In this document: positions 366-37,542 of the stretch, piece by piece
How positions within the stretch are numbered: position 1 is the stretch's first letter
Layout: every line of letters begins with the position of its first letter
Virus record (IMG/VR): IMGVR_UViG_3300027749_000056
Span: 49,623-113,622 of that record
Origin: a virus
Strand: one strand, 5' to 3'
DNA length: 64,000 bases
The notes under the pieces: generated by a model
The model's database searches: none
Seen by the model: the letters and a program-made list of their open reading frames with translations, nothing else
Told to the model about the DNA's origin: nothing
Made by a program: the position numbers and the translations under genes

Positions 366-600
366 TTGTTCTTCTCACTGATCTGGCAAATTTACCCGAG
401 TCTCTTGTACGAATAGCGTTAAGCAATTTGCGCTGCAAATTTTCAGCCTGATCAGCTGGAAACTCTGTATCAATTTGTTCTAGCAATCTAATAGCATTAG
501 CAATAAGAGTGGCCGCACGATTTTCAATCAACAGGCGGCGATCACGCTCGATGTACAGATCGTCTAATTCTTCTAGTAAACTGCGGGTGCGTTTTTGCAT
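352..600 (-). CDS. Small coiled-coil protein of unknown function
   Basis: This 82-residue protein is charged and probably helical, rich in Arg, Glu and Leu, with heptad-like spacing in its first 50 residues, so a coiled coil is likely. I chose the ATG at 600. An upstream TTG at 672 would overlap the divergent radical SAM gene, and a late-type box AATAAATA lies at 621-628, 20 nt before the ATG. It overlaps the next gene downstream by 14 nt. I do not recognise a family. The late box suggests a structural or assembly role, which is inference. Confidence 0.55.
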   Translation of the reverse strand: MQKRTRSLLEELDDLYIERDRRLLIENRAATLIANAIRLLEQIDTEFPADQAENLQRKLLNAIRTRDSGKFARSVRRTNADT

Positions 601-620
601 CTGCTCAAGGGCCTTTGGAT

Positions 621-628
621 TATTTATT
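621..628 (-). promoter_or_regulatory. Candidate late promoter box AATAAATA
   Basis: The box differs from the T4 late consensus TATAAATA by one base and lies 20 nt upstream of the ATG at 600, leaving room for a short leader. It is one of a set of such boxes in front of genes in this window. Confidence 0.45.
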
Positions 629-664
629 AATATTTTCACATTGAAGTTGGTAATTAAATACCCA

Positions 665-20125: not shown

Positions 20126-21037
20126 TTACTTATTGATCCATTTTCGCATGTGTGTCCAACATGCACCATTGCTGAGTTCTTGAAAATTCCAGTGGAACAT
20201 GGATATGCGTTCCAACCAAGACTGTCTGTCATACAATACTGGATTTTCAATTTGGGCCAGATCAGTGTTGGCGATATCTTTGCATTGGCTACGGACAGGA
20301 TCAGTTACAAATACTGGATATCCTTCTATGGCAGCACCAACCACGGAACTGGAATTGTAATTGATCACTGCCCAACAGTCAACTAAATCTTGTTCAATGG
20401 TTCTTCCCGGTTCACTGATATTTACATTTACAAGTCCCTGCAATTGTTTTACATAATTCTTACTTGACTTATCTCCCGGATGAGCACGAATCACAATTGG
20501 TCTAGAAGTATGTTTTCTTAAAGTGTTAATAGTATCTAGTGTCCACGCAACTACATCAAGTCCGGCCATACTCCAACCACCGTTACGTTGTAAGCATAGC
20601 AAAATGTGTTGTCCTGATTTCCTATAGTCTTTTACAGCAAGATTGAGATTGCGTTGTATTTGCTGCCATCTTGCAGGATCAACTTGATCATCACAGTAAA
20701 TTCCAGAATTAGGAAAAATACCATTGAAGCTGTATCGCAAATAATTTCCTGGGTTGGTACTGTTTTTGTACAAGAATAAATTGCTATCTGCTGCAACAAT
20801 GCTGCGATGTGATAGTATCGCTGAGTGACGCAACTTCAAATGCGGAGTATCTGTTAGAGCGTGTACCCAACCTTGTATCATGCCAACATCTGTTGACACA
20901 CACTCATATCCTTGCACATCAATTACTACATCGCCAGTTCTTTTTACACCTTGAGAAAAGTTGGTCAAAATCAAAGGCTTCTCAAGATTTTTATTACTTG
21001 AAGGAACCGACTTATGATATACTGCTACTGATGCCAT
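20126..21037 (-). CDS. Capsule-type GT-B-like transferase
   Basis: A 303-residue paralogue of the gene at 16966: RPIVIRAHPGD, then DCWAVINYNSSSVVGAAIEGYPVFVTD. A longer N-terminal half may bind the acceptor. Its start overlaps the GT-A gene upstream by 26 nt, repeating the GT-A plus GT-B-like pairing. Function is by analogy with capsule transferases. Confidence 0.68.
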   Translation of the reverse strand: MASVAVYHKSVPSSNKNLEKPLILTNFSQGVKRTGDVVIDVQGYECVSTDVGMIQGWVHALTDTPHLKLRHSAILSHRSIVAADSNLFLYKNSTNPGNYLRYSFNGIFPNSGIYCDDQVDPARWQQIQRNLNLAVKDYRKSGQHILLCLQRNGGWSMAGLDVVAWTLDTINTLRKHTSRPIVIRAHPGDKSSKNYVKQLQGLVNVNISEPGRTIEQDLVDCWAVINYNSSSVVGAAIEGYPVFVTDPVRSQCKDIANTDLAQIENPVLYDRQSWLERISMFHWNFQELSNGACWTHMRKWINK

Positions 21038-21773
21038 GATGCTGTAACAGCATTTCGCTGTTAAAAGGTTCTTTCGCTCCAGCCTTGTAGTGCATGATAT
21101 AAGGAGCCATTACACTGCGAGGAATAGGTGTTCTGTGTCGCTGTTCCGGATTTAGTTCCATAACTCTAGCACCTTGATTTTCCATTTCTTTGATTACTGC
21201 TCCATAAACTTCGCCATCATAAAATCTTCGTAACTCATTTCCTCTGCCGGTCACATACCAATCTTGATATTGATTCATCATGGTCTCAAACATGGCATGT
21301 CGGCGATTCAATATAAAAAAACCAGTTTCGCAACTAAAACTAAATCTAGTTTGATCAGTGTCGCTGGGCCAAGGATGCATCACACCATAATGTGTGCTCA
21401 ATATCTCTGGGGGAGAAATCAAATCCAAAAGATGTTGATTTATCTCTTGTAGTGTAACTACATCAGCGTCCAGCCAAATTAACCTATCGCAATCTATATC
21501 CCGAGCACCTGCCATGATACTGAATGCTTTTTTAGCAAAAGTGATAGTTCTAGAGGTCCAAGGTCCTGCAATGAACTCTTTATAGTCTTTTCCAAGATCT
21601 GTCCAGGGTTGATAGTGTACCGTTTTATGTTTAGGTCGATCTTGAATGCCTTCATCATACACATACAAGGGTATGCTGTTGGGCCAATACTGATTGAAAC
21701 TTTCGATGCAGGCACGCCCGCATTTTTCATAATATGCATGATCCATACTGGTAACTACTGCAAATTTAGTCAT
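21012..21773 (-). CDS. Glycosyltransferase, GT-A type
   Basis: A 253-residue protein: FAVVTSMDHAYYEKCG at the N-terminus and RLIWLDADVVTL with DxD. CETGFFILNRRH matches the acceptor loop of related enzymes. The ATG at 21773 overlaps the upstream gene by 8 nt; the frame back to 21833 is not needed. It resembles the plus-strand enzyme at 17826 in layout, so the two are probably paralogues. Confidence 0.8.
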   Translation of the reverse strand: MTKFAVVTSMDHAYYEKCGRACIESFNQYWPNSIPLYVYDEGIQDRPKHKTVHYQPWTDLGKDYKEFIAGPWTSRTITFAKKAFSIMAGARDIDCDRLIWLDADVVTLQEINQHLLDLISPPEILSTHYGVMHPWPSDTDQTRFSFSCETGFFILNRRHAMFETMMNQYQDWYVTGRGNELRRFYDGEVYGAVIKEMENQGARVMELNPEQRHRTPIPRSVMAPYIMHYKAGAKEPFNSEMLLQHHGISSSIS

Positions 21774-22527
21774 GTTCAAATAATATTCTAGCGGCTGTGC
21801 CGTCACTAAGTTCGTCGTTATGAAACTGTCCATAAGCTAAATGACAGGCCCATGCATGTAATTTATCCTGATCGGGATAATACGGCTTTTCAATTTGCGA
21901 TAGATCTTGCAATCCAACTGGTCCAGCAGCGTTAGGAGCAAGAGTAAATACAGGAACTCCTAATAATATACTTTCGGTTGCAGCATTAGAATTGAATGTG
22001 ACCAAGGCATGTGCATCTGTTAGAGCTTGTGCTAGGGTATCTGTGGTTATTCTGTCTATGCGTTTGGGAGATCGTTGTCTTACTACTACTGGTCTGTCAG
22101 TATGTTGTCGAATTATGGCAACTGTTTGTTCTATCCAAGTATTGAGATCTATCTCATAAAATTTACAAGGTTTCTCATCAGGTGCAGCCACCACAATATT
22201 GCGGCCTTGTCGCCATGGTTGAAATTTGAGTCCATGTTTTTCCCAACGGTCTCCCGGGCTATTCTGTATCTCTGTCAACTGCAAATTATTTTTTACAATG
22301 CGATGCCATTGCTTCCATCGACCGTTGCCAAAGTATCCAGTGTCTACGTAATAAAAATCTCGCTTGTCGTGCCAACAGCGTTTCATTATTTTGTGTTTTA
22401 AGATACCACGCAAAACTATAGGTTGGTCACTGGCATCATAATCAAAATCAGCGACTGGTTGTTGTCCACAGCCATACGCAAGCATGTTAATGTATTCATC
22501 CTTGCCATTTTTGCTTAAAAAAATCAT
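21766..22527 (-). CDS. Capsule-type GT-B-like transferase, altered RxHP loop
   Basis: A 253-residue third paralogue: the loop reads RPVVVRQRSPKR instead of RxHP, then DAHALVTFNSNAATESILLGVPVFTLA. Loss of the His-Pro may change the donor or the activity. The ATG at 22527 overlaps the upstream stop (ATGA). It pairs with the GT-A gene at 22524-23204. Confidence 0.65.
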   Translation of the reverse strand: MIFLSKNGKDEYINMLAYGCGQQPVADFDYDASDQPIVLRGILKHKIMKRCWHDKRDFYYVDTGYFGNGRWKQWHRIVKNNLQLTEIQNSPGDRWEKHGLKFQPWRQGRNIVVAAPDEKPCKFYEIDLNTWIEQTVAIIRQHTDRPVVVRQRSPKRIDRITTDTLAQALTDAHALVTFNSNAATESILLGVPVFTLAPNAAGPVGLQDLSQIEKPYYPDQDKLHAWACHLAYGQFHNDELSDGTAARILFEHD

Positions 22528-23204
22528 ATGCGTTGTTGACAATATTCTGTAAGCATGCGTTCCCGGTGCCACTCGTTGCCTTGTGGTGTATCAGCAAACT
22601 CGTGAAAGCATGGAGTGCCCAAGGTATAATGCAAGAGCTTGGCCGCGGGGTTTGGCCCGTATTCATCAGGCAACCAATTCCATTCTGGAGGCAATTCGCC
22701 TATGCGTTCGTCCTTTAGCCATGTGAATCTATGCAGTTCGGCGCCAGTGGACTTTTGCACGAATTCTGGTGTGAGACGTCTATTGGGATGGCTGTTGCAA
22801 TTCCACAGTATAACACTTGACCAGTTCTTGCATGGATAGTCTTCGTTTTTGGCGCCAAGGTACTTTTCGGTCCGGCTGGTTTTGTAATTATGTTTGACTA
22901 CCATGACATCTTTGTCAAGTTGCCTCAAGTTCCAAAGTTCTGCAATGTCTCCACGCACAATCATATCGCCGTCAATGAATACTGCCCAGCCTTCGTATTG
23001 CATGAGATGGGGCACAAGGAATCGTGTGTAGATAAAATGATTGCTTCCGTCTGTGTGTGTTTCGCTGTAGTCTCGAAACAAATTTAGTGCCACAGGCACA
23101 ATGGCCACAGGTTGACTGCTGTTGCGTATGATTGAATTTACACAGGTATGATATGCAATGGCTTCTCTTGGATCATACCCTACGAAAATTGGAATTGGCT
23201 TCAT
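22524..23204 (-). CDS. Glycosyltransferase, GT8-like
   Basis: A 226-residue protein: PIFVGYDPREAIAYH at the start, RFLVPHLM and WAVFIDGDMIVRGDI with a DGD metal site (78-80), the layout of GT8 and LPS galactosyl/glucosyltransferases. LLHYTLGTPCF supplies the late His of GT8-type enzymes. The ATG at 23204 overlaps the upstream stop (ATGA). Confidence 0.82.
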   Translation of the reverse strand: MKPIPIFVGYDPREAIAYHTCVNSIIRNSSQPVAIVPVALNLFRDYSETHTDGSNHFIYTRFLVPHLMQYEGWAVFIDGDMIVRGDIAELWNLRQLDKDVMVVKHNYKTSRTEKYLGAKNEDYPCKNWSSVILWNCNSHPNRRLTPEFVQKSTGAELHRFTWLKDERIGELPPEWNWLPDEYGPNPAAKLLHYTLGTPCFHEFADTPQGNEWHRERMLTEYCQQRI

Positions 23205-23962
23205 AGGCGTTCGATATCTTCTTCCACACAATCTTCGCCAAACTGTATTTCAATCAGTCGAAGTGGGCGATCAGTTTCATTGCACAGTTGATGCCATTCG
23301 TTACGGTTGATCCAACATGACTCATGTACAGTAAGATGGTCTTTAACATCTCTATCGGTACTAGAATCCAGTGTGTATACTGTGGCTTCACCTTCGGCCA
23401 CAAACCAAAACTCTGCTCGCTTGTCATGTCGTTGCATGCTCAGGCAAGTTTTAGGTGTGACTGTGAGTTCTTTCAGCTTGGTGTTGGCGCCGACTTCGTG
23501 TAGCACACGATAATACCCCCAAGCTCGTTGAGTCCGAGGCTTTTTCCAATCTTCCAAAATCCACGAGCTTGAATTTGTTTTGTTGGATCCGCCTACACCA
23601 AATGCAAATTCTAAATTGCTATCTTTAACATCCATCTCTGGAATGTTTGTGTGTGTACGATCGCCGCCATTGGCAAACACAAGGTCAGCATCAGGATAGT
23701 GTGCTCGAATCTGCTGTATAAAATGACATGCAGAACCGTCTGAATCATCAAAGGTGTAAACTTCATCTACCATGGCAAGATTGTTTATCACACACAATCT
23801 TTCTGTCCACGGCATAAACGGCCGACCTTTTTTGCGTGTGAGCCATTCATCCGAATTGAGACCCACAATCAGCATGTCGCCCAGTGTGCGTGCTGCTTTG
23901 AAATAGGCAATGTGCCCGGAGTGTAGCGGGTCAAAGCCGCCGGTGACAAGTGCAATTTTCAT
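23201..23962 (-). CDS. Nucleotidyltransferase fused to a cupin
   Basis: A 253-residue two-domain protein. Residues 1-140: GGFDPLHSGH (HxGH motif at 14-17) and a PWTERL region, as in the HldE C-terminal domain and glycerol-3-phosphate cytidylyltransferases, which activate a sugar or polyol phosphate as a nucleotide derivative. Residues about 165-253: a cupin barrel (QRHDKRAEFWFV, then EWHQLCN) like the type II phosphomannose isomerase module. The fusion could make an activated sugar for the neighbouring transferases. It heads the island; the ATG at 23962 is 20 nt after the previous stop. Confidence 0.8.
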   Translation of the reverse strand: MKIALVTGGFDPLHSGHIAYFKAARTLGDMLIVGLNSDEWLTRKKGRPFMPWTERLCVINNLAMVDEVYTFDDSDGSACHFIQQIRAHYPDADLVFANGGDRTHTNIPEMDVKDSNLEFAFGVGGSNKTNSSSWILEDWKKPRTQRAWGYYRVLHEVGANTKLKELTVTPKTCLSMQRHDKRAEFWFVAEGEATVYTLDSSTDRDVKDHLTVHESCWINRNEWHQLCNETDRPLRLIEIQFGEDCVEEDIERL

Positions 23963-24635: not shown

Positions 24636-24892
24636 TAATTTTCCCAGTCGTCTTCGTTGTAATCCTCTTCTTCAGGATCTTCTTCGTCTTCAGCATAGTC
24701 TTTGTCGTTGTCAAGATATGCTGTGAGTGCTCGTTTGATATCAGTATCACCTTTGAAAGCGTTGCGGATATCTTCTACATCACTATCATTGTCCATTAAG
24801 ATTTGCACCACAGTCTCTGCCGCCTCGGCTCGATCAACAGTGTTTACAAACCGCTTGAGTTCGCTCCAGATTTCACTTACGATTGTTTCCAT
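24635..24892 (-). CDS. Small acidic protein between uvsX and uvsY
   Basis: An 85-residue protein with a helical N-terminus and a strongly acidic tail (EDEEDPEEEDYNEDD). Such tails often mimic DNA or contact single-strand-binding proteins. I recall a small acidic gene at this place in related phages; the function is unknown. It shares one base with UvsY (TAATG type). Confidence 0.7.
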   Translation of the reverse strand: METIVSEIWSELKRFVNTVDRAEAAETVVQILMDNDSDVEDIRNAFKGDTDIKRALTAYLDNDKDYAEDEEDPEEEDYNEDDWEN

Positions 24893-24904
24893 ATTTTTCC
24901 TTTA

Positions 24905-26002
24905 CTAATTGATCCACTTTTGAAAACTTTGCGGAAAAGCATCAAATGACAATGCTCTTCTTTTCGCAAATTCTTTTATATATTGTTTAAACTGAGTGAC
25001 TTGGTAATCATTGGTAGCTGCGTTTATACACTGTGTTACGATATCATCGTAACGGTCATATTTACAAGAATTTACAAGTTCTTTGGTTTCGTCATCTAGC
25101 ACTGATGCACTTTGGTAATCAGGATCACTGCATGGGTTAATTATAATTTTGCGATCTCCGGACCAATCTAAAAATTGTCTGAATCCTTGAATGGTGGTGT
25201 TGCTGATCACACTACAAAACTGATAGTCAAATCCAAATTCTCTTATTGTTTGTAAATTTTCCTGGAACTGATCCCATGAGTTGCCATACCGATTGAATTC
25301 ATACAAGGCTTCGATATTTTCTGCACTCACTGTCAACGTGGTTGTGCGAGGTAACTGATCTAATATTCTTCGAAATCTTGTCGGGCTAACACCCAGTCCT
25401 GTAAAAATATTTGAACGTCGAAAACCACTTACAATATCAACAAGCCCGTTATATAAAAAAGGTTCGCCGCCAGTAATTTCAATAGTGTCTGCATGTTTGT
25501 ATTGCATAACAGAATCTAAAATGCCTAAATAGGATTTACTTCCTTTGATGGCTTTTTGTCCTAATTTAGATACAACCTTGTCACTGATGTTTACTCGAAA
25601 TCTTTCTTGATCAAAATATACGCCATTATTTTCAATATCTCTCAACCAAGCAGTGCTATACTGTTTACAACAATAACTGCAAGTTAGATTACAATCACTA
25701 CCAAGAACAATATGCAATGTAGTTGGCATGCATTCAATATTAGTATGCGTTACTTGATCACTGTGCATTACCAATCGTCTACTAAGTCTTCCTTGCCTTT
25801 CTGGTTGCCAACAAGTTGCCTCGCAACTGCTGACTTGATTGCCCTCAAGCATGTTTTGCCTGTCTTGCTGAAACTCAACAATATTAAACAAATCTGTTGT
25901 TGTAGAATCTACTCGTTGCGGAGTAGCTGCACAGCAACTGGCAACTGTGCGGCGTTCGGGTTCTACCGTAAGCCACCAAAACTTTTGAGAGCAATAAGTC
26001 AA
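24905..26002 (-). CDS. Radical SAM protein with N-terminal twitch-like segment (copy C), TTG start
   Basis: A 365-residue enzyme. Cys 4, 23/24, 60 and 64 lie ahead of CNLTCSYC (104-111); STAW, TGGEPF and FNRYGNSW follow. The first codon appears to be TTG, directly after the UvsX stop. No ATG occurs before residue 51, and the cysteine segment must be included. It has a longer spacer before the core than the other copies and VSAEN where they have SIDG or SCDG, so it is the most divergent. It separates UvsX from UvsY. Confidence 0.8.
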   Translation of the reverse strand: MTYCSQKFWWLTVEPERRTVASCCAATPQRVDSTTTDLFNIVEFQQDRQNMLEGNQVSSCEATCWQPERQGRLSRRLVMHSDQVTHTNIECMPTTLHIVLGSDCNLTCSYCCKQYSTAWLRDIENNGVYFDQERFRVNISDKVVSKLGQKAIKGSKSYLGILDSVMQYKHADTIEITGGEPFLYNGLVDIVSGFRRSNIFTGLGVSPTRFRRILDQLPRTTTLTVSAENIEALYEFNRYGNSWDQFQENLQTIREFGFDYQFCSVISNTTIQGFRQFLDWSGDRKIIINPCSDPDYQSASVLDDETKELVNSCKYDRYDDIVTQCINAATNDYQVTQFKQYIKEFAKRRALSFDAFPQSFQKWIN

Positions 26003-27055
26003 TTATTCTTCAACAGCGTCTGACACTGTTTCTTCCTTGATATTTGCAAAATCTTTCATTACGGTATCAAGGCAGTTGTCATCGTTACGTTCCCATCCTT
26101 TGCGGAACTTCTTGATAATTTCGCCTTCGGTTGTGGTGAATACCAAGCTGTTGCCTTCTTTCTTGAGCAGGCCTTTTTTCTCAATCAAGTCAGTAAGTCC
26201 CGAGTACGGACTCATGCCTGTTGTGTAGGGGATCTTTACTTGCACACCTTCAAACGGTTTGGCATAGCGTGTTTTCATGACCTTGCAACCAGCACGTATG
26301 CCCATCACGTCAGTGATCTTGTTGCCGTCCTCGTCCTCTTTCAGCTTCATCTTCTTCATAGCCACAACAATTGAGCTGGCGTAAATGAAACCTTGACCGC
26401 CTGAGATCTTATCATCTGGGTCAAACATATCCTGGCTTGCGTATGTGTGGTTGGTACAAACCAAACCCACATTGTATGAACCAAACATATTCACACAGTT
26501 GCGCACCAAGGCGGTGAGAGCTTTGGGCTTACGGCCTAGATCACCCTTCATTTCGCCTGCATCAAATTGGTTCACGTCTGTGGGGGTGAGCAACATGCCC
26601 AACGAGTCAATCACAAACATAACCTTGGGACGCTCGCCATCTGGCAAGGCCTTGTAGTCACTCATGAATGTGGAGATAGTCTTTGCCACATCATCAATCA
26701 TGGCCATGCTCAATTTTAGCAATTTGCTGTCACTTGTATCCACACCAAGTGCCTTGAGCCAGTCTTCGTCCAGTGCGTTTTCACTGTCAATCAGCACCAC
26801 AAAGATACCTTGCTCTTGTGCGTTCTTCACAATATTACCTGAGCAGATATAACTTTTACCCGCACCTGAATCTCCGGCAAATACAGTGACTTTGCCCAGT
26901 GGAATGCCACGATTGAAGTCGCCTGAGATCAAGTAGTTCAGGGCATAGTTGCCTGTGGAGATCCAGTCTGTTGGATCATTAAAGCCGATTGAAAGTCCGT
27001 CAATGCTTTTGGTGATTTCCTTGCGGAACTTGCTTACATCAAATGGTTTGCCCAT
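26003..27055 (-). CDS. uvsX: UvsX recombinase (RecA/Rad51 family)
   Basis: A 350-residue strand-exchange protein (T4: 391). Walker A GDSGAGKS (61-68), a Walker B-like MFVIDSLGMLL, and GGQGFIYASS as the DNA-binding loop region. The ATG follows AAGGAA. It would form filaments on gp32-coated DNA with UvsY for recombination-dependent replication. It is co-directional with the radical SAM gene downstream and immediately abuts it. Confidence 0.93.
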   Translation of the reverse strand: MGKPFDVSKFRKEITKSIDGLSIGFNDPTDWISTGNYALNYLISGDFNRGIPLGKVTVFAGDSGAGKSYICSGNIVKNAQEQGIFVVLIDSENALDEDWLKALGVDTSDSKLLKLSMAMIDDVAKTISTFMSDYKALPDGERPKVMFVIDSLGMLLTPTDVNQFDAGEMKGDLGRKPKALTALVRNCVNMFGSYNVGLVCTNHTYASQDMFDPDDKISGGQGFIYASSIVVAMKKMKLKEDEDGNKITDVMGIRAGCKVMKTRYAKPFEGVQVKIPYTTGMSPYSGLTDLIEKKGLLKKEGNSLVFTTTEGEIIKKFRKGWERNDDNCLDTVMKDFANIKEETVSDAVEE

Positions 27056-27069
27056 GGGTTATTTCCTTT

Positions 27070-28212
27070 TTAAATTAAGTTGTATAAATTTTGAAAAATT
27101 GTTTTACTATCTAATCCTCTTCTTTGATCCAGCGTCTGCAATTTTTCTATTGCTCCTGCTAGATTTTTTTCAAATGGTTGATTCAAATAGCTCAACATAT
27201 TTCGATAGCTTTGTTCTAAGAGATACTTTGGTTGTTGATTAATTTTTTCTTGCAGCGTGTATTTCAGTGAGTGTAACACATGATCTGGCAAATGTCTAAC
27301 ATTTAGGTATAGTGGGTCAAGTAAAGCTCCGATTATGAAACTGTTGTTGTGGAATCCCAAAGATTTCAAATGATCTACACAACCAAATATGCTTTGATAA
27401 TTTAGCAAAAAATGCAACATGTTAAAAGATATCTTATGATTCAAATTTTTGATTGTTTTAAGATTTTCTTGGAAGTCTATCCAACTGCTGCCATATCTGA
27501 TGTATTCAAATTCTTGTTCTACAGTTTCAACACTCACCGTCCAATGAACGTTTTTAAATCCGCATACCAAATCAAACACCTGAGTATCTACTTTGCTAAG
27601 ATTGGTATTGATGCGCAGGTTTACATCTGGATTGACTTTTTTTAACAACACTAATAGTTCTAAATTCTCTTTCATCAGCAGTGGTTCACCACCGGCTAGA
27701 TATACATGTTTGAGTTGCGCAGCATGTTCAAACACATATTGTTTGAACTGATCAATCTGATCTGTAGTAGGGCTATGTTGAACAACTTTTAACTCACTGG
27801 CCCATTTGCTACTGAACATGGGGCCGCAGTAGACGCATGCAAAATTACAAAGATTGGTCCATCTTACGTCAATGGCTTGAAGGTCGAAATTTCCAGGAGT
27901 ATATAAAGAAGTAGGAGTGTGCTTGAGTTCTTTTATGTAGAACACACGATCGCTAATGATATTTAAACCTGTATTGCTACCTTCAAGGTCATAACAAGTA
28001 TGGCAAGTGGCCACTGGTTGTTGGTTTACAATATGATCTTGCCTGGGTCGGTTGTTATCAATCAAAATCTGCTGTATAGGTTGTTCCTTGATATTACCAA
28101 GTTTACCGGCACTACGAATACAGTTTTTCACTTCGCCATCGAAGTTATACATCATTCCAGACCATGGCATGGGACAAAAATATGAGTTGGTTAACATCTC
28201 TTTTGGAGTCAT
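27070..28212 (-). CDS. Radical SAM protein with N-terminal twitch-like segment (copy D)
   Basis: A 380-residue enzyme. YFCPMPWSGMMYNFDGEVKNC (Cys 13 and 31) and CHTC (70-73) form a clear SPASM/twitch-like half. The core has CNFACVYC (122-129), SSKW, AGGEPLL and FEYIRYGSSW. The start overlaps the SDR stop by ATGA, making it the last gene of the gp32-downstream modification cluster. The substrate is unknown. Confidence 0.88.
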   Translation of the reverse strand: MTPKEMLTNSYFCPMPWSGMMYNFDGEVKNCIRSAGKLGNIKEQPIQQILIDNNRPRQDHIVNQQPVATCHTCYDLEGSNTGLNIISDRVFYIKELKHTPTSLYTPGNFDLQAIDVRWTNLCNFACVYCGPMFSSKWASELKVVQHSPTTDQIDQFKQYVFEHAAQLKHVYLAGGEPLLMKENLELLVLLKKVNPDVNLRINTNLSKVDTQVFDLVCGFKNVHWTVSVETVEQEFEYIRYGSSWIDFQENLKTIKNLNHKISFNMLHFLLNYQSIFGCVDHLKSLGFHNNSFIIGALLDPLYLNVRHLPDHVLHSLKYTLQEKINQQPKYLLEQSYRNMLSYLNQPFEKNLAGAIEKLQTLDQRRGLDSKTIFQNLYNLI

Positions 28213-28754
28213 TGGAACACCGGGCCTAACGAAATATCAGCAACAACCAAGCTGTTGGCTTGTGCCATATCCAAAATATTTATTAGCACTCTAGCCCAGT
28301 TGTCTACATCAGCAGCCGGCGGCACAGTTTTATCTGCACTGGTAGCAATATTTCCTGGTCTAACAATCGTATATTTTATGCCAAGTCTGGCATGTCTCAA
28401 TTGTTGCACTGCATGTTCTAGTGTGACTTTTTGTGCTCGATATTCAATCATCTCAATACCCGGTAACATGCTTATTGGATCTTGAGTCATTATAGTGCTG
28501 ATCACCACAATGTGTTTGCGTAAATGTTTCCATCGCTTGCTCATTTCAAACAACAATTCTGTTTGTGCAAAACCAGCTTGAGCATTGTTTACAAATACAT
28601 CACAAGGTTCAACTTGATCACATATTTTAGGTATATTGCGTATGTTATCTCCATGCCTTTTGCTTAGGCCAATAATTTCATGCCCCTGCTCAACTAATTG
28701 TTTACTGAGGGCCAATCCAATTCCCGCAGTATGACCAGTTATTGCTATTTTCAT
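28209..28754 (-). CDS. Short-chain dehydrogenase/reductase
   Basis: A 181-residue Rossmann protein: ITGHTAGIG (5-13) binds NAD(P), VNNAQAG matches the NNAG motif, and YRAQK gives the YxxxK catalytic pair. It is shorter than usual SDRs (about 250), with the substrate loop reduced. It may oxidise or reduce a sugar or a product of the neighbouring radical SAM enzymes. It is coupled at both ends (ATGA overlaps). Confidence 0.85.
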   Translation of the reverse strand: MKIAITGHTAGIGLALSKQLVEQGHEIIGLSKRHGDNIRNIPKICDQVEPCDVFVNNAQAGFAQTELLFEMSKRWKHLRKHIVVISTIMTQDPISMLPGIEMIEYRAQKVTLEHAVQQLRHARLGIKYTIVRPGNIATSADKTVPPAADVDNWARVLINILDMAQANSLVVADISLGPVFQ

Positions 28755-29224
28755 TGTAGTAAGTGCAGTGGTTCGTTATAAAATGTAAAACTAGCAACAA
28801 TTCTAGGAATCTTGATTGCTGTTGTTCTTTCTACGCTGTGTTCAATCTGTGAATTGAACACTATTGGTGTTGGCATATCTTGTAGTTCTGCAACTAACTT
28901 GTTATCAACATACCAACGATTGGCCCACCCTTGGGTATTAATTACAGGAAAGTTCATTTTTGCCACAACTGGCAGCTGATCGATATGCCGGGGCAAATGT
29001 TTGTTAGTTTCAATTATGGTAACTGCGGCATTTCTTGGTACTAGTTTTTTGTTTTTAAAAAATTCAAACAATTCTGGCACCTGCTCAAGAACTGCAATAT
29101 GATCAATAAAATTCCATCCAAAATTTATTACTTGCAACAACTCAGTCTGAGTTTTTAAAAAATTATAAATTTTGTCAGCAATAACTTGAGTGTGATCGCA
29201 TTCCACCACAGTATAGTATTTCAC
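28751..29224 (-). CDS. Putative 2-oxoglutarate/Fe(II) oxygenase, GTG start
   Basis: A 157-residue protein. LPRHIDQ gives an HxD pair (His/Asp at about 81-83), EHSVER a distal His, and an Arg follows near ASFTFYN. This is the iron and oxoglutarate layout of the double-stranded beta-helix oxygenases, close to aspartyl hydroxylase-like proteins. It starts at a GTG that overlaps the upstream stop (GTGA). Hydroxylation of a peptide or sugar is inference. Confidence 0.55.
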   Translation of the reverse strand: MKYYTVVECDHTQVIADKIYNFLKTQTELLQVINFGWNFIDHIAVLEQVPELFEFFKNKKLVPRNAAVTIIETNKHLPRHIDQLPVVAKMNFPVINTQGWANRWYVDNKLVAELQDMPTPIVFNSQIEHSVERTTAIKIPRIVASFTFYNEPLHLLQ

Positions 29225-30105
29225 TTGATCCCCCTTAGGTCTTTTTGTTTTTGTATGTATGCATCTATTGATTGTTGATCTTTATTGTTTATACTTAAAA
29301 TCGCAGGCTCTTCAAGATATGCATAAGAATGATCAATGTCAAGTTCTTGAGCAAATGCCTGTATGTTAGGCAAATCCTCGACATTCAAACAGCTAACTGT
29401 GGTCCACAAATTTAATGTTACTGGCATGGTTTTATATACCATTAAGTTTTTATAAAAAGTGTCCCACTTGATCGGCCATCGCATGAACTCGTGTATTGGA
29501 CCAATGCCATCGCAACTTACAGTAACAGTAACGTTCACACCAGACTGTGCAATGTCCACCAATTCATACAACACCACATTGCAATTGGTATTAAGACGTA
29601 ACGTTTTAAGGTTAGGTGGCAAATTGGCCAATAGTGTTTTGTAGTTTTTGCTATAACTGGGTTCTCCCCCGTTAATATCCAAATGTCTAATGCGCTGTTG
29701 TGGAAGATTTTTAAACTGATCACTGTTGTTTACAATAGGAAAAGTTTTCCCAATTAAACTGCCAATTCTAGTGCTACAGTTTGGATTACAAGTCTGGCAA
29801 GCTGCATTACATACATTGTCTAATACTCCACCTACTTGTAAATAATCAACTTGTGTTTCTTGTTGATCTAATTTTATTGCGTATGTTCTTATACTGTCAT
29901 TACCTTGCTGTTCAATTTGACTACAACGACTACATTCAGTTGGCCAAATATCTGTTTGAAATTTAACCTTAATGTCGCTCAACCATTTGCTCAATTCTAA
30001 TTGTTCAAGATTTTCAAACTGCGGTGGGTTGACCATGTGACCGCAACGGCTTACGGTACCATTGGGATTGAATCTAACAAAATGATCAAGTCTTGGGCAA
30101 TACAT
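29221..30105 (-). CDS. Radical SAM protein with N-terminal twitch-like segment (copy E)
   Basis: At 294 residues, one of the two shortest copies here. Cys 3 and 21, then CSRC (58-61), precede CNAACQTC (99-106); CSTRI replaces the usual S-S/T-x-W. NGGEPSYSK, SCDG and HEFMRWPIKW follow. The C-terminal part of the barrel is short. The start overlaps the sulfotransferase-like gene by 20 nt. The substrate is unknown. Confidence 0.83.
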   Translation of the reverse strand: MYCPRLDHFVRFNPNGTVSRCGHMVNPPQFENLEQLELSKWLSDIKVKFQTDIWPTECSRCSQIEQQGNDSIRTYAIKLDQQETQVDYLQVGGVLDNVCNAACQTCNPNCSTRIGSLIGKTFPIVNNSDQFKNLPQQRIRHLDINGGEPSYSKNYKTLLANLPPNLKTLRLNTNCNVVLYELVDIAQSGVNVTVTVSCDGIGPIHEFMRWPIKWDTFYKNLMVYKTMPVTLNLWTTVSCLNVEDLPNIQAFAQELDIDHSYAYLEEPAILSINNKDQQSIDAYIQKQKDLRGIK

Positions 30106-30712
30106 GTGCTATGATGTCTGGATAATTACTCTTGTAATGATTAATGAGTTCTTGCCAGGTCAACAGTTTACCATCTAAGTCAAGCAAGATTTGATCTAAA
30201 TACCACCATAACTCTGCACTAGGGTCATTTTCAAGTAATTTTTTTACAAAATCTTGACTGGGTGGATCAATCAAAGCACGGTCTCGAAAATCAGTTATTT
30301 TGTCAAGCTCTTTTAAATCTCTAAATCGTATTTTAGTTGTGGGTTTGAGATACTGACTTAGATTTGCTACCCAGTGAAACTGTGGCAGATAGTGTGTGTT
30401 TAAAAATTTGTAGCGTTTGGCAAACCATAAGGCAGTTTTGACATCAAGTTCTGGATGATCTCGAAATAGATGTTGCAAATAAGTGTTGACTCCACTTACA
30501 TATCTGGCTTTTGGATTTCGGATATAAACATCTACAAAATCAAGTGACAAAATTTGTTCATTACAAAATACATCAAGATTGTTTTGTTCTTGTTGTAATC
30601 TCAAACTACTGCTTCCATTTTTTTGAATCAAATAAATCCACTGATTGTGAAGTGGCATTGCTACCACTTCACAAAGTTTAGGAAACAGCTCTTGATCAAG
30701 AGCTGTCAGCAT
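30086..30712 (-). CDS. Putative sulfotransferase
   Basis: A 208-residue protein. IYLIQKNGSSSL fits the 5' phosphosulfate-binding loop of PAPS sulfotransferases (K-x-G/A-x-S/T), and VYIRNPKARYVSG fits the 3' phosphate motif (R-x-P-x-x-R-x-x-S). The two motifs lie about 50 residues apart, as in membrane-type carbohydrate sulfotransferases. It would move sulfate onto a sugar or peptide. It overlaps gp32 by TAATG coupling, so it is made with gp32. Confidence 0.65.
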   Translation of the reverse strand: MLTALDQELFPKLCEVVAMPLHNQWIYLIQKNGSSSLRLQQEQNNLDVFCNEQILSLDFVDVYIRNPKARYVSGVNTYLQHLFRDHPELDVKTALWFAKRYKFLNTHYLPQFHWVANLSQYLKPTTKIRFRDLKELDKITDFRDRALIDPPSQDFVKKLLENDPSAELWWYLDQILLDLDGKLLTWQELINHYKSNYPDIIAHVLPKT

Positions 30713-31707
30713 TACTGCTTGTTTTGACGTGCGCGGATCATGGCCAAAATGTCTTGGGCATTACCACTAGGTTTGGCTGCTGTGACTGGCGCGGCAGCAG
30801 ACGCTGGTTCTTCATCAAACGAATCTTCAGCCGCAGGTGCTGCTGGTGCAGCCACCTTCAGTGCTGGCTTAGCAGCAGGTGCCGGAGTGTCATCAGCATC
30901 GCTGGCAGCACCACCGGGTGCGGCTACGCCTGCAGGACGAAAGTATTGACCCCAACGCTCGGTGTCGTATGGTTGTCCGTCTACTGATGCTTCAAACATC
31001 TCTTTGATCACCTTCAGTTCAACATCGCCAGGACGCTTGGGCAAGAATGTGCTTAAGTCATACAAGCCGTGAGTTTCAATTGCAGCCTGTTCAGCTTCTG
31101 TGAGTGCTGACTCTTTTCTAGCCCACTTGGAACTGTTGTAGTCAGCAAAGCCACCCTTTTGGGTCTTGGTGATACGGAAGTCCAAGCCACGCATCAAGTC
31201 AGTTGGCAATTCTTCCAGCTCAGGATCCATCAACGCACCCTTGATCAAGGTAAACAGTTGAGGTCCAATGATGAACTTGCGGATGGGATTGTCCGGAGTC
31301 TTGTCTTCGGAGATGGGATTCTCACGCACAAAACCTTGGAACAGATATGAACGTTTTTTCCAGTACTTGCGACCCATGTCCTCAAGGCTCTTGTCCTTGA
31401 ACCAAGTACGAACTTCTGCCAGTACCGGGCAAGCGTCTCCCCACATTTCCACGCAGGGTACTTGTACGAATACTTGTTTGGATTCCATTTCTCCTTTGAC
31501 GCCGTTGAATGGCAGTCGGATCATTGCTCGTTCGACCCAGAAAAATGTGTTTTTTGTGTTACCGTCAGGTAAGAAGCGTAGTGTGGCCGATTGACCTTCT
31601 TCCATATTCCAGTGTGGATAAATTGCTCGATCGCCTCCACCTTGGTTTGAGTTGCCTTTGTTTTCAGCTGCCTGTAGTCTTGCTCGGATTTCTGCTAAAG
31701 ATGCCAT
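30712..31707 (-). CDS. 32: Single-strand DNA-binding protein gp32
   Basis: A 331-residue protein (T4: 301) that coats single-stranded DNA. The N-terminal helix ASLAEIRARLQAAE is the cooperativity region; the core shows YPHWNMEEGQSATLRFLPDG and YWKKRSYLFQGFV. The zinc loop is reduced (CVEMWGDACPV). The tail after about 260 is Ala/Pro/Asp-rich with an acidic EDSFDEEP for partner proteins. The ATG follows AGGAGA. Three GTTGCCT repeats lie in the leader. Confidence 0.9.
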   Translation of the reverse strand: MASLAEIRARLQAAENKGNSNQGGGDRAIYPHWNMEEGQSATLRFLPDGNTKNTFFWVERAMIRLPFNGVKGEMESKQVFVQVPCVEMWGDACPVLAEVRTWFKDKSLEDMGRKYWKKRSYLFQGFVRENPISEDKTPDNPIRKFIIGPQLFTLIKGALMDPELEELPTDLMRGLDFRITKTQKGGFADYNSSKWARKESALTEAEQAAIETHGLYDLSTFLPKRPGDVELKVIKEMFEASVDGQPYDTERWGQYFRPAGVAAPGGAASDADDTPAPAAKPALKVAAPAAPAAEDSFDEEPASAAAPVTAAKPSGNAQDILAMIRARQNKQ

Positions 31708-31727: not shown

Positions 31728-31770
31728 GTTGCCTATGTGTTGCCTATCTAAAATTAGATCTTTGTTGCCT
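31728..31770 (-). promoter_or_regulatory. Three GTTGCCT repeats in the gp32 leader
   Basis: GTTGCCT occurs at 31728-31734, 31739-31745 and 31764-31770, starts 11 and 25 bp apart, just upstream of the gp32 ribosome site. It may be an operator or an RNA site for autoregulation, which gp32 of T4 is known to show; the link is inference. Confidence 0.4.
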
Positions 31771-31788
31771 GTGACGCACAAACAATAA

Positions 31789-31816
31789 AGCGCATACACC
31801 ATGTAGTATATGCGCT
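31789..31816 (-). terminator. Rho-independent terminator upstream of gp32
   Basis: On the minus strand a perfect 8-bp stem AGCGCATA / TATGCGCT, extendable to 11 bp with one G-U pair, is followed by a TTTATTGTTT run. It lies 14 nt after the stop of the gene at 31830 and should isolate gp32 from it. Confidence 0.7.
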
Positions 31817-31829
31817 ATTTGCCTTGGTG

Positions 31830-32837
31830 TCAAGTGTATTTATGAGCAAGTTGTTCTAAACTGATAATATCATAGGGCTTTTGCCAGAGTTGCTCATGGT
31901 TGTGAGCAAACACATCACGATTAGTAACAAACAGTTCGTGTAGTTGTTCCATGTTGGATGACAACTCTAATAGACATCGGATGTAAGCCCGAAATCTAGG
32001 TTCAGTGGCAATCTTATGTGAATCATTATGATGATCTTCTATATCATCCCACTCATAATCTATACCAACTGGTAGTTTCCATCCATCATTCACAAGAGTA
32101 CGATAAAAATGTCTTGGGCCAAAATTCATTACAAATCTTCCCTGTATCAAATGATCATATGTTTTCTCTGAATACAATATAGTGGGCCCTTTGCATAATG
32201 ACTCAACTTGTGCTGATATGTATGTATTGTCAAAATATTTTCTAGCCGGTGGTGTTGCCTGCAACCTGGTCAGATCGTTAATACCAGTCTCACTGGGCAA
32301 ACTTGTATTGTTAACATCATATCCGCCGTGATATCCAGAAACGTGTTTAATCTGATGATATAAATGTTGCTTGAGCCCCCAATTATTTGTTCCATACAAA
32401 GAAAGTATGGCACCGGGACGTCTAGTTAATTCTACAGGCCATTGATTGTAGTTGTCTGGCGATTGTTGTTTCCAACTTGACTGTTTGTCAAGATATGCAT
32501 ATTTGGTGCGATTCCAGTAAAAATCAAAATGCAAAATATTGTCTATACCAGGTATGGGTGTTTTACAAGCTGTTACTAACACCGTTGGTATAAGTTTTTG
32601 ATAATGCCGAACTATGTTAAGGCAAGATTGATCAGGTCCAGGATGAGCATGAAATAGATCATAAAAAACTAATTTTTTGACTAAGTGAGTTTTTATATAC
32701 TTTTTAATCTCTTTCGAATTAGTCCACCAAAAAGGAACCCATAGTTCAGTTGATTGGTGATTCTGAACTATGGGTAACCATTGAGGCATTGAAAAAATAA
32801 ACGGATCACCACCTGGGAATGGTGCTACCTCATGCAT
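31830..32837 (-). CDS. TEK-motif glycosyltransferase-like protein (paralogue 1)
   Basis: A 335-residue protein. TILYSEKTYDHLIQGRFVMNFGPRHFYRTLVNDGW matches, in layout, the TEK region of two other proteins here (40391 and 54556). An E-K pair followed by a fixed-spacing aromatic helix and a late L-x-x-x-G is reminiscent of the C-terminal nucleotide-sugar site of fucosyltransferase-like GT-B proteins. The N-terminal half is beta/alpha with no clear motif. It ends at the terminator 14 nt downstream. Function is tentative. Confidence 0.6.
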   Translation of the reverse strand: MHEVAPFPGGDPFIFSMPQWLPIVQNHQSTELWVPFWWTNSKEIKKYIKTHLVKKLVFYDLFHAHPGPDQSCLNIVRHYQKLIPTVLVTACKTPIPGIDNILHFDFYWNRTKYAYLDKQSSWKQQSPDNYNQWPVELTRRPGAILSLYGTNNWGLKQHLYHQIKHVSGYHGGYDVNNTSLPSETGINDLTRLQATPPARKYFDNTYISAQVESLCKGPTILYSEKTYDHLIQGRFVMNFGPRHFYRTLVNDGWKLPVGIDYEWDDIEDHHNDSHKIATEPRFRAYIRCLLELSSNMEQLHELFVTNRDVFAHNHEQLWQKPYDIISLEQLAHKYT

Positions 32838-35228: not shown

Positions 35229-36812
35229 TTAGCGCATCATTGATATGAATGGAAACGGCTCAACAATCATATCTCCGTGGTCTTTTAAGTGTGTATCCAA
35301 GTCTGCATGGTAGGTTTGCAACATCATTAACATGCGCACAGCTAACAAACTGGCCATTACCAAGTCGTCTGTTTCGCCTGGTTTGGCTTCGTAACTGGTA
35401 CCCATAGCCACAAACGTTTTGAGTTCGCTCACTAAGGGCCTTGAGTTGATTTTCATTCGCCCAGACTCTACTAAAATTTTGAACTTGTTACAAGCTACAA
35501 TTTTGCTTTTGTTTGTGGTTGTAAATCCTTTGCGAATTTTGCGCCCACTTGTGCCTTGTACCGAGTTGTCGCTTAGAAAATACCCAGGAATATTTTGTTC
35601 GCCATATTCTGCTATGCTGATTAGTGCAGCTTCACCAATAGTGTTGTTTTCTACTGAGTAGTAAATGCTTTTTTCATCTTGCACTACACCATGCAGTTCT
35701 TTAACAATGTCTGCTAAAATTCTAATTTGTGTGGGAATGTCAGTTTTGTTGTGCCGCCATTCAGCAATCTGATCCGTTGTTCTTGCATCAAATACTTGTA
35801 TAGCAGAAGGGTCGCCACCTGTGCCCAAGCTAGGATCTAGTGCTATTACATACATGCCATCTTTTACAGGATTTTTATACCAACGCACTTGCCCAGTTCT
35901 ACGTATGGGCTCTGCACCTTCCAAGTCCATCAGCTTGATAGGTGCTATCAATGTTTCGTCGTTGATAACAAATTCGCAATCCATTTCTCTGCGAAAACGT
36001 TCTTCGCCCAATTGGGCCAGTTGTTCTGAACCCCAGGCATCACCACGGTCAGGATGTTCGCGCCAGTATGATCTAAATGCTCGGAATCCGTTGATGCCTA
36101 GTTCTGTGGTGTTGCCATGTTCATCTTCACATTTGTTGGCACCTTTCCACAAGAATGCAAACTGATCTTCGTCTGAGTTGGGGGTTGATGTGATAATTGC
36201 CTTACCACCAGTGGCCAATGTGGGAGAAATTGAAGTCCAAAACTCTTTGGCAATGGTGGGGCGCACAAATGCAAATTCGTCAGCGTACAGCAATGAGATT
36301 GACATACCCCGGCCTGTTGTTTCTGTTGTGGTCTGACTAACAATACGACTACCATTTTCAAACTCTATCGAACCTTTGTTGTAGCTGGTAGCACCTGCTC
36401 GAATATGATTGGAGCACAGTTCATACGCATATCTAATACGTTGCATGATTTCTTGTGCGCCTGTGTATTTGTGTGCAGCAATAAGAATTGTTGAGTCTGG
36501 CACAAACATAGCATACCATAAGAGATATCCAGCTGCCGAAGTTGACTTGCCTGTTTGTCGAGGCATCAGTGATATTGAATATCTATAGTTGTGATAGGTA
36601 TGGATCAGTCGCTTCTGATAGTCAAAAGGATGATACAGCATTTTGCCGCGTGTGGGATGCTGGATAAAGAAAAAGTTATCCATGAAATACAGCGGACCAG
36701 TCACAGGATCAGCGCATAGTGCAAACTCTGTGAGTTCCTGTTCAGTGTATGTTTCGACCCTGTGTGGTGCTTTGACCAGCACTGTTTCTAAATTACTTTT
36801 TAGACCAATCAT
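35229..36812 (-). CDS. 17: Terminase large subunit, gp17
   Basis: The packaging motor that cuts concatemers and pumps DNA into proheads. It has 527 residues (T4: 610). ATPase: LMPRQTGKS (82-90) and LLYADEF (Walker B Asp-Glu, 178-179), TETTGRG between. Nuclease: VIALDPSLGTGGDPSAI with the first metal Asp. The start lies 20 nt inside the end of the SGNH gene, so the accessory gene precedes it in the operon. Partner gp16 lies about 10 kb away. Confidence 0.95.
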   Translation of the reverse strand: MIGLKSNLETVLVKAPHRVETYTEQELTEFALCADPVTGPLYFMDNFFFIQHPTRGKMLYHPFDYQKRLIHTYHNYRYSISLMPRQTGKSTSAAGYLLWYAMFVPDSTILIAAHKYTGAQEIMQRIRYAYELCSNHIRAGATSYNKGSIEFENGSRIVSQTTTETTGRGMSISLLYADEFAFVRPTIAKEFWTSISPTLATGGKAIITSTPNSDEDQFAFLWKGANKCEDEHGNTTELGINGFRAFRSYWREHPDRGDAWGSEQLAQLGEERFRREMDCEFVINDETLIAPIKLMDLEGAEPIRRTGQVRWYKNPVKDGMYVIALDPSLGTGGDPSAIQVFDARTTDQIAEWRHNKTDIPTQIRILADIVKELHGVVQDEKSIYYSVENNTIGEAALISIAEYGEQNIPGYFLSDNSVQGTSGRKIRKGFTTTNKSKIVACNKFKILVESGRMKINSRPLVSELKTFVAMGTSYEAKPGETDDLVMASLLAVRMLMMLQTYHADLDTHLKDHGDMIVEPFPFISMMR

Positions 36813-37542
36813 CTAGTATTCTTTCGGTAAATGTTGCATGACCTCTTGGTCCAGCATGCATGTAATCTCTTGCATACTCTGCTTCTTCCCTACTGCGGCT
36901 CATCCAGACATCTGCTTCGTAGCTTAAGAATAGTATGCTGAGTTGATTGCATACAGCTTCAATGGCCAGACTGTTCTTGCGATTATTTAATCGTTGATTT
37001 GCATCTACACTTAACCATTTTTTAACAAACACATCCAGGTGATTGCTCATGGGCATTACAGTATCAGTTTCTCCTGTGGTCTCATTCACCACAACTTCCA
37101 TTCGACCACGTGGCGGATTTAAAAGCACTACTAATTTTGGTTTCAATCGTGGAATCCAATAATCGGCCAATCTAAAACACTGATCTGAACTGGCGCCACC
37201 CCATCCAAAGTTGCATGCTCTTAAATTTAACGCTTGTGCCAATCTAGTTGGCCATAAATCTTTGTATGGCAATCCAATACCCATGGTAAAGCTGCAACCC
37301 AATGCCACTAAATTATCAGCCAAAGGATCAAATTCTTCTGACCTAAATCCGTCACTGTTTATTTTATAGCTAATAGTGTCTGGCTTATCCCATGCTTTTT
37401 CTTGAAAGTATGCACGATGTACAGGATCTTGCATCATACGGTCAAAACTTTCTTCAGTATCTGTAGGCCACCATTGATAAGTTTTGCCAGCAGTCAAACT
37501 GATATTACTATGCCAAGGTGGAGTAGTGACCTGTGGCATCAT
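36793..37542 (-). CDS. SGNH-type hydrolase-like protein, GCS variant
   Basis: A 249-residue protein. NLVALGCSFTMGIGL has Cys-Ser in place of Asp-Ser of block I; NFGWGGASSDQ fits block II with its Gly; ARDYMHAGPRGHATF has an Asp three residues before the first His and a G-H pair after it, as in block V. The ATG at 37542 follows AAAGGA and overlaps the radical SAM stop. The 3' end overlaps terminase by 20 nt. It is the partner of copy F in the cluster. The substrate is unknown. Confidence 0.65.
   Translation of the reverse strand: MMPQVTTPPWHSNISLTAGKTYQWWPTDTEESFDRMMQDPVHRAYFQEKAWDKPDTISYKINSDGFRSEEFDPLADNLVALGCSFTMGIGLPYKDLWPTRLAQALNLRACNFGWGGASSDQCFRLADYWIPRLKPKLVVLLNPPRGRMEVVVNETTGETDTVMPMSNHLDVFVKKWLSVDANQRLNNRKNSLAIEAVCNQLSILFLSYEADVWMSRSREEAEYARDYMHAGPRGHATFTERILDDWSKK

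What the first reader, a model, noticed from the sequence alone, without database searches (positions are those of the whole stretch)
27070..30712. Coupled modification cluster between uvsX and gp32
Seen: sulfotransferase-like, radical SAM E, 2OG oxygenase-like, SDR and radical SAM D are read in that order with overlaps of 20, 4, 4 and 4 nt, and the first is coupled to gp32 by TAATG. Inference: five enzymes acting in turn on one substrate, produced with the single-strand-binding protein. No precursor peptide gene is visible, so the target may be a sugar, lipid or host molecule.
Basis: partly seen in the sequence, partly recalled or inferred. Interest (0 to 1): 0.65.

Follow-up and report, generated by a model that had tools for sequence, protein, structure and literature searches.

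The report
Phage sulfation and radical-enzyme gene cassette
Large freshwater-type phages carry, between two DNA-recombination genes, a swappable block of four or five enzymes (a sulfotransferase, two radical-SAM enzymes, a reductase and often an oxygenase) that always travels together and probably decorates a sugar, so a virus appears to own a small chemical tailoring pathway that no named database phage was found to carry.

Summary
In detail: ST, rSAM-E, OG, SDR and rSAM-D lie at the stated coordinates with overlaps of 20, 4, 4 and 4 nt, and ST starts in the TAATG of gp32. It is more than chance packing. Among IMG/VR contigs I found 171 distinct E-to-D cassettes: 169 have the SDR between, and 150 begin gp32-ST. 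In best-80 searches, all 55 ST, 55 SDR and 44 OG homologues sat in this cassette; none was solitary. Four genes are core; OG is optional. Catalytic residues are invariant, and the genes co-vary beyond their flanks. However, tight overlap is common in this phage (41 of 104 junctions), and the link to gp32 is positional: gp32-uvsX is a cargo slot. Among 89 relatives it was empty in 25, held other cargo in 43 and the cassette in 18, with at least 26 state changes on the flank tree. No INPHARED phage matched ST or rSAM-D, and 84,980 bacterial/archaeal genomes gave only two distant rSAM-D relatives. Best reading: a tailoring pathway, probably for a carbohydrate. Cellular N_Twi_rSAM relatives lie between GT2 glycosyltransferases in a Wzt-type polysaccharide export locus, and phage paralogues cluster with a carbamoyltransferase. 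Substrate and product are not shown.

The parts
30712..31707 (-). gp32-like single-strand DNA-binding protein; upstream border of the cargo slot and leader gene of the transcript
   Evidence: PHROG 1192 ssDNA-binding protein 221.9 bits; Pfam gp32 26.0 bits, just below cut-off 26.8
31805..31833 (-). promoter-like site TTGACA-17-TATACT about 126 nt upstream of gp32, probably the promoter of gp32 and the cassette
   Evidence: 11 of 12 consensus; 47 of 73 relatives, with and without cassette, have a site scoring 10 or more against 4 of 73 shuffles
30086..30712 (-). ST: sulfotransferase-like enzyme (208 aa), core member
   Evidence: invariant R65, R70, G74, H107, Q111, W114 in 62 homologues; model pLDDT 92; BFVD best match A0A6J7WGY4 'Sulfotransferase family' TM 0.81; PDB best matches heparan-sulfate sulfotransferases, weak
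29221..30105 (-). rSAM-E: radical SAM enzyme with N-terminal twitch-like auxiliary cluster site (294 aa), core member
   Evidence: N_Twi_rSAM 144.8 bits; invariant C99/C103/C106 and C3, C21, C58, C61, GGEP motif, in 42 homologues
28751..29224 (-). OG: 2-oxoglutarate/Fe(II) oxygenase-like protein of the Asp_Arg_Hydrox kind (157 aa, GTG start), optional member
   Evidence: Asp_Arg_Hydrox E 0.0068, below cut-off; invariant H80xD82, H129, R141 in 18 homologues; 44 of 44 homologues lie in the cassette
28209..28754 (-). SDR: short NAD(P)-dependent reductase/epimerase-like protein (181 aa), core member
   Evidence: adh_short and Epimerase above cut-off; invariant TGxxxGIG, S86, Y105xxxK109 in 35 homologues
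27070..28212 (-). rSAM-D: radical SAM enzyme of family N_Twi_rSAM (380 aa), core member
   Evidence: NF033640 235 bits, cut-off 170; invariant C122/C126/C129 and C13, C31, C70, C73 in 35 homologues; model pLDDT 88
26003..27055 (-). uvsX recombinase; downstream border of the cargo slot
   Evidence: PHROG 97 UvsX 230 bits; nearest named phages Sinorhizobium phage Phosso and Atu_ph07, 67-68%
24905..26002 (-). rSAM-X: further N_Twi-type radical SAM gene in a second slot, between uvsX and the uvsY-position gene; not part of the cassette unit
   Evidence: N_Twi_rSAM 148.7 bits; slot holds an rSAM in 59 of 145 distinct intervals and only about 230-310 nt in 73

Best explanation
This is a mobile tailoring-pathway cassette carried as a unit in a cargo slot between gp32 and uvsX of T4-related environmental phages. 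Shown: four core genes (ST, rSAM-E, SDR, rSAM-D) and one optional gene (OG) in fixed order, intact catalytic residues, co-variation, and frequent gain or loss at one exact position. Inferred: it is read from the gp32 promoter during infection and acts on a carbohydrate, either a host or virion surface glycan or its nucleotide-sugar precursor. Proposed chemistry: the twitch radical SAM enzymes remove hydrogen from unactivated C-H positions (oxidation, dehydration or epimerisation), the NAD(P)H-dependent SDR reduces the resulting carbonyl (the logic of AprD4/AprD3 and BtrN in aminoglycoside synthesis), ST caps a hydroxyl with sulfate from host PAPS, and OG, where present, adds a further hydroxyl. 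The likely benefit is altering the cell surface or virion glycans against superinfection, receptor loss or host recognition.
For: Unit: 171 distinct cassettes, 169 with SDR, 166 preceded by ST, 159 followed by uvsX; all 55 ST, 55 SDR and 44 OG best-80 homologues in cassette context. Co-variation after removing flank divergence: SDR/rSAM-D r 0.67, E/D 0.54, E/SDR 0.47, ST/D 0.47, none of 500 permutations reaching any observed value. Activity: invariant cluster cysteines, SDR Ser-Tyr-Lys, OG HxD..H..R, ST motif residues. Slot. Transcription: conserved promoter-like site ahead of gp32 with or without cassette. Carbohydrate: cellular N_Twi_rSAM genes (371-378 bits) lie between two GT2 glycosyltransferases in three related genomes, one checked further and found next to a polysaccharide deacetylase and a Wzt_C export ATPase; a relative phage's six-gene N_Twi_rSAM cluster adjoins a NodU/CmcH-type carbamoyltransferase; the rSAM-D N-terminus aligns with the twitch of BtrN (E 0.004) and its model ranks BlsE and AprD4 among its matches; the nearest solved sulfotransferase folds act on glycans. 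AprD4/AprD3 as an rSAM/reductase pair: PMC5461906.
Against: The top structural neighbours of rSAM-D are peptide or protein modifiers (SuiB, SkfB, anSME), so carbohydrate is not the only reading. The cellular glycan context comes from three closely related genomes of one order, effectively one observation. PDB matches of ST are weak (E 0.13). No glycosyltransferase is in the cassette. Co-variation can arise from linkage alone, and E and D are not strictly locked (L093: E 92%, D 53% identical). ST and rSAM-E occur alone in two phages. No substrate, product or expression data exist.
Confidence: 0.45

Rival explanations
1. Post-translational modification of a peptide or protein: the radical SAM enzymes, OG and ST modify side chains of a phage or host protein (for example a tail fibre or a precursor encoded elsewhere).
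For: Best sequence and fold matches include SkfB, SuiB and anSME; Asp_Arg_Hydrox enzymes can hydroxylate protein Asp/Asn (established knowledge of PF05118); sulfotransferases can act on tyrosine (established knowledge).
Against: No precursor gene: only about 15 nt of the slot are non-coding. An SDR has no usual role on peptides. ST solved-fold matches are glycan sulfotransferases.
Confidence: 0.2
2. Synthesis or alteration of a small diffusible metabolite (natural-product-like compound, anti-defence molecule or signal).
For: The slot's alternative cargo includes natural-product-type enzymes: AMP-binding ligase, B12-binding radical SAM, amidinotransferase-like (by eye), hexapeptide acyltransferase, Asp_Arg_Hydrox.
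Against: No scaffold-forming enzyme in the cassette; the same enzyme types are equally usual in glycan decoration.
Confidence: 0.17
3. Hypermodification of phage DNA, which would explain the position inside the recombination/replication module and the rapid turnover.
For: Position between gp32 and uvsX; 2OG-type genes beside uvsX and uvsY in cyanophages Syn9 and P-SSM4 (PMC2984593).
Against: No thymidylate synthase/dCMP hydroxymethylase family member in ten related records, some of them fragments; sulfotransferase and SDR are not parts of known phage DNA hypermodification routes (own knowledge); the slot is a general cargo site.
Confidence: 0.07
4. No shared pathway: independent accessory genes brought together by a recombination-prone site and kept together by linkage only.
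For: The slot takes unrelated cargo; internal mosaicism (E and D identities uncoupled in L093 and L013).
Against: Fixed order with no solitary homologue in 154 loci searched by ST, SDR and OG; the same overlaps kept in divergent phages; invariant catalytic residues.
Confidence: 0.08

Closest known systems
N_Twi_rSAM family (NCBIfam NF033640)
   Same: rSAM-D passes the curated cut-off; rSAM-E and rSAM-X match over most of their length below it. N-terminal twitch cysteines plus CX3CX2C are present.
   Different: A family name without an assigned reaction; the four/five-gene cassette is not part of its definition.
AprD4/AprD3 radical SAM diol dehydratase with reductase partner (aminoglycoside C3' deoxygenation)
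   Same: A radical SAM enzyme paired with an NAD(P)H-type reductase, here adjacent with a 4-nt overlap in 56 of 67 cassettes; AprD4 is among the fold matches of rSAM-D.
   Different: No family-level homology shown for the pair; substrate unknown; a sulfotransferase and a second rSAM are added.
BtrN (twitch radical SAM dehydrogenase of butirosin synthesis)
   Same: Twitch auxiliary-cluster domain aligned by profile.
   Different: In BtrN the twitch follows the core (residues 168-248); here it precedes it (residues 12-86).
Radical-SAM-rich T4-like environmental phages (T4-like SAR86-type phage with 12 rSAM genes, PMC5332604; pelagimyophage rSAM cassettes in a hypervariable region, PMC7029224)
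   Same: T4-related phages with many rSAM genes and an A-type iron-sulfur carrier; rSAM genes as variable cassettes.
   Different: The passages read do not describe the ST-E-(OG)-SDR-D cassette or the gp32-uvsX slot.
T4-like hyperplastic regions (cyanophage g15-g18 region; 2OG genes beside uvsX/uvsY in Syn9 and P-SSM4, PMC2984593)
   Same: Accessory genes inserted at fixed points between core genes.
   Different: A different site (gp32-uvsX), with a whole multi-enzyme set exchanged as a unit.

Membership tests
N_Twi_rSAM (NF033640) | Score over the curated cut-off of 170 bits | tested here: met
   rSAM-D 235.1 bits over 10-379; rSAM-E 144.8 and rSAM-X 148.7 are below it
Radical SAM superfamily | CX3CX2C cluster motif, conserved | tested here: met
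   C122/C126/C129 in rSAM-D and C99/C103/C106 in rSAM-E invariant
Twitch/SPASM radical SAM enzymes | Auxiliary-cluster cysteines | tested here: met
   C13, C31, C70, C73 (rSAM-D) and C3, C21, C58, C61 (rSAM-E) invariant; Pfam SPASM 28.1 bits over 21.5 in rSAM-D. Cluster content itself not testable here
PAPS sulfotransferase | Pfam sulfotransferase family over cut-off | tested here: not met
   Window ST has no hit; 7 of 62 homologues hit Sulfotransfer_2, best E 0.0094
PAPS sulfotransferase | Fold and PAPS-binding motifs | tested here: inconclusive
   BFVD A0A6J7WGY4 'Sulfotransferase family' TM 0.81, E 7.8e-14; K31-N-G-S-S-S and R65xP..R70..S73 in the positions of the 5' and 3' phosphate motifs; PDB matches weak, E 0.13 or more
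Short-chain dehydrogenase/reductase | Family score, TGxxxGxG and catalytic Ser-Tyr-Lys | tested here: met
   adh_short 32.8 over 26.6; T6G7..G11I12G13, S86, Y105, K109 invariant
Asp_Arg_Hydrox 2OG oxygenases (PF05118) | Score over cut-off 22.6 | tested here: not met
   16.7 bits
Asp_Arg_Hydrox 2OG oxygenases (PF05118) | HxD...H iron triad and arginine | tested here: met
   H80, D82, H129, R141 invariant in 18 homologues
RiPP biosynthetic cluster | Precursor peptide gene in or beside the cluster | tested here: not met
   Slot fully coding apart from about 15 nt between gp32 and uvsX; a precursor elsewhere in the genome is not excluded
AprD4/AprD3-type deoxygenation pair | Radical SAM dehydration of a diol followed by NAD(P)H reduction | not testable with these tools
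   Adjacency and co-variation of SDR and rSAM-D only
T4-like hyperplastic (cargo) region | Variable gene content between the same two conserved core genes | tested here: met
   89 distinct intervals: 25 empty, 43 other cargo, 18 cassette, 2 ST plus rSAM-E, 1 short

The most novel reading that the evidence does not exclude
A virus-restricted multi-step pathway in which two twitch radical SAM enzymes, an SDR and a sulfotransferase build a sulfated, radically rearranged sugar unknown in cells, exchanged between phages as a ready-made module at a gp32-uvsX cargo slot.
Probability: 0.25. Interest if true: 0.85.

Novelty: new variant of a known kind. Interest (0 to 1): 0.62.

Why it matters
Radical-SAM-rich phages have been noted before, but what the enzymes do has stayed open. 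Here is a compact, conserved and repeatedly exchanged set of four to five genes with intact active sites that can be expressed as one unit, so the question becomes directly testable. If it makes a sulfated sugar, it would be a virus-encoded tailoring pathway with no cellular counterpart found so far, a source of new enzyme chemistry, and a marker of selection on glycans in environmental phages. The gp32-uvsX slot, with its alternative cargo, also offers a place to look for further unknown phage pathways.

Tried and rejected
Overlap as proof of coupling: rejected as sole evidence, since 41 of 104 same-strand junctions in this genome overlap and 20 overlap by exactly 4 nt. Functional tie to gp32: rejected, because relatives have an empty slot or unrelated cargo. 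Named-phage homologues: none for rSAM-D or ST in INPHARED. Cellular homologues of rSAM-D: the 84,980-genome scan gave two distant matches only (28 and 36%). PAPS-supply gene: an APS-kinase-like P-loop protein follows one cassette (L221) but scores equally for other P-loop families and is not general; not used. DNA hypermodification: no thymidylate synthase family member in ten records. T4-type late promoter TATAAATA: one site in the window, none near the cassette, no more than chance. A-type iron-sulfur carrier as partner of the cassette: also present in a phage with empty slot and no N_Twi_rSAM, so not specific. PHROGs for ST: scattered weak hits, nothing consistent. Literature searches found no description of this cassette, but only open-licence papers were searched.
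Full report
OBSERVATION. The window is bases 49,623-113,622 of a 113,622-bp IMG/VR virus record. The same sequence occurs at 99-100% identity in a longer record of 147,553 bp (L012), and the same order recurs in many independent contigs, so an assembly chimera is very unlikely.

ENZYMES. rSAM-D passes NCBIfam N_Twi_rSAM (235 bits, cut-off 170); rSAM-E matches over most of its length at 145 bits. Both keep CX3CX2C and four N-terminal cysteines without exception. The rSAM-D profile aligns residues 12-86 with the twitch domain of BtrN, which there follows the core, so the domain order is permuted. SDR passes adh_short and keeps TGxxxGIG and Ser-Tyr-Lys. OG falls below the Asp_Arg_Hydrox cut-off but keeps HxD...H...R. 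ST is the weakest by sequence: no hit of its own, 7 of 62 homologues at best E 0.0094 to Sulfotransfer_2. Its model is confident (pLDDT 92), matches a viral sulfotransferase at TM 0.81, and has heparan-sulfate sulfotransferases as its best, though weak, solved matches. I take it as a sulfotransferase with about 85% confidence (judgement).

A CONSERVED UNIT. Homologues were gathered with rSAM-D, rSAM-E, uvsX, gp32, SDR, ST and OG as separate queries. Over all of them there are 171 distinct E-to-D cassettes; 169 have the SDR between, 166 are preceded by ST (150 by gp32-ST), 159 are followed by uvsX, and 65 have an OG hit (the OG share is inflated by the OG query). Among the best 80 hits each, 55 of 55 ST, 55 of 55 SDR and 44 of 44 OG homologues (distinct sequences) lie inside the cassette or at a contig edge of it. 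More distant homologues elsewhere are not excluded. Junctions are kept: E/OG -4 in 15 of 18, OG/SDR -4 in 15 of 16, E/SDR -4 in 45 of 52 without OG, SDR/D -4 in 56 of 67, ST/E -14, -19 or -20 in 69 of 74. With flank divergence removed, pairwise distances still correlate between cassette genes (r 0.22-0.67, highest SDR/rSAM-D; 0 of 500 permutations reach them). Linkage could add to this.

A CARGO SLOT. Overlap with gp32 is not a functional tie. Of 89 distinct gp32-uvsX intervals found through the flanks alone, 25 are empty (under 140 nt), 18 hold the full cassette, 2 hold ST and rSAM-E only, 43 hold other cargo and 1 is short. L187, with gp32 97% identical to the window's, is empty. On a tree of 116 gp32+uvsX pairs the cassette state changes at least 26 times (shuffled mean 38, minimum 31), and OG presence within cassettes is indistinguishable from random (10 changes; shuffled 8-12). 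Other cargo includes an Asp_Arg_Hydrox enzyme, an AMP-binding enzyme, a hexapeptide acyltransferase, radical SAM proteins with and without a B12 domain, and several families without any match. The cassette genes are AT-rich (35-40% GC against 44% genome mean; ST and OG are the two lowest of 113 genes), a bias kept across relatives for ST (36%) and rSAM-D (37%) against gp32 (49%). A promoter-like TTGACA-17-TATACT lies 126 nt upstream of gp32 in phages with and without cargo, so inserted genes are probably read from the gp32 promoter (inference).

MECHANISM. Substrate evidence is indirect. For carbohydrate: in three related genomes from one order, the cellular N_Twi_rSAM gene sits between two GT2-like genes, and in the one examined over 19 kb Pfam confirms the GT2 neighbours and adds a polysaccharide deacetylase, another GT2 and a Wzt_C export ATPase. 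In a related phage (G002) six N_Twi_rSAM genes lie between an ADI-like gene and a NodU/CmcH-type carbamoyltransferase. BtrN, BlsE and AprD4, which act on sugars or cyclitols, are among the matches, and AprD4 works with the reductase AprD3 (PMC5461906), a precedent for rSAM-D plus SDR. Against: the highest fold matches are peptide or protein modifiers. The proposed order of reactions is inference. Host identity was not established; the uvsX is closest to jumbo phages of Sinorhizobium and Agrobacterium at 67-68%.

NOVELTY. No INPHARED phage has rSAM-D or ST, and only two distant relatives of rSAM-D turned up in 84,980 bacterial and archaeal genomes. N_Twi_rSAM at E 1e-45 or better occurred in 4 of 246 genomes of one phylum, whereas 8 of 9 related phage records have a member over the cut-off, with up to 14 matches in one record. 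rSAM-rich T4-like phages and rSAM cassettes are known (PMC5332604, PMC7029224), as are hyperplastic regions (PMC2984593). The five-gene module and its slot are, as far as searched, undescribed. Hence: new variant of a known kind.

Noticed in passing
window 24636-26002: Second cargo slot between uvsX and the uvsY-position gene: about 230-310 nt in 73 of 145 distinct intervals, holding a radical SAM gene in 59. Here it holds rSAM-X.
   Followed up: partly
window 36793-40383: Second overlapping cluster beside the terminase-like gene: GDSL/SGNH-like hydrolase, radical SAM, an oxygenase-like ORF (by eye, no Pfam match), radical SAM.
   Followed up: partly
window 551-2792: Two convergent, overlapping radical SAM genes on opposite strands.
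   Followed up: no
window 23201-23962: Fusion of an HldE/RfaE domain II-like adenylyltransferase with a GMP_PMI-type cupin, suggesting sugar-nucleotide activity in the phage.
   Followed up: partly
window 31728-31747: Tandem ATAGGCAAC repeats in the gp32 leader; the only two copies in the window. Similar GGCA repeats in relatives. Possibly a gp32 autoregulatory operator.
   Followed up: partly
window 31789-31816: Strong terminator-like hairpin (12 pairs) just after the gene at 31830-32837, overlapping the -10 element of the gp32 promoter-like site.
   Followed up: no
G000:C1:42416-42718 (outside the window): A-type iron-sulfur carrier (PF01521, 60.8 bits), as in a published T4-like SAR86-type phage rich in radical SAM genes. 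Also in a relative without any N_Twi_rSAM.
   Followed up: partly
L252:5056-18001 (G002 relative phage): Cluster of six N_Twi_rSAM genes with an ADI-like gene and a NodU/CmcH-type carbamoyltransferase, a short way downstream of tail-fibre-like and (by eye) glycosyltransferase-like ORFs without Pfam match.
   Followed up: partly
L226:9002-10637 and L183:6385-7946: Slots with only ST and rSAM-E, possibly a minimal two-enzyme form.
   Followed up: no
G000:C1:2662-3285, 20855-21166, 22222-23457 (outside the window): ORFs that by eye look like ClpP, ClpS and ClpX, a phage-borne protease set; not tested by profile.
   Followed up: no
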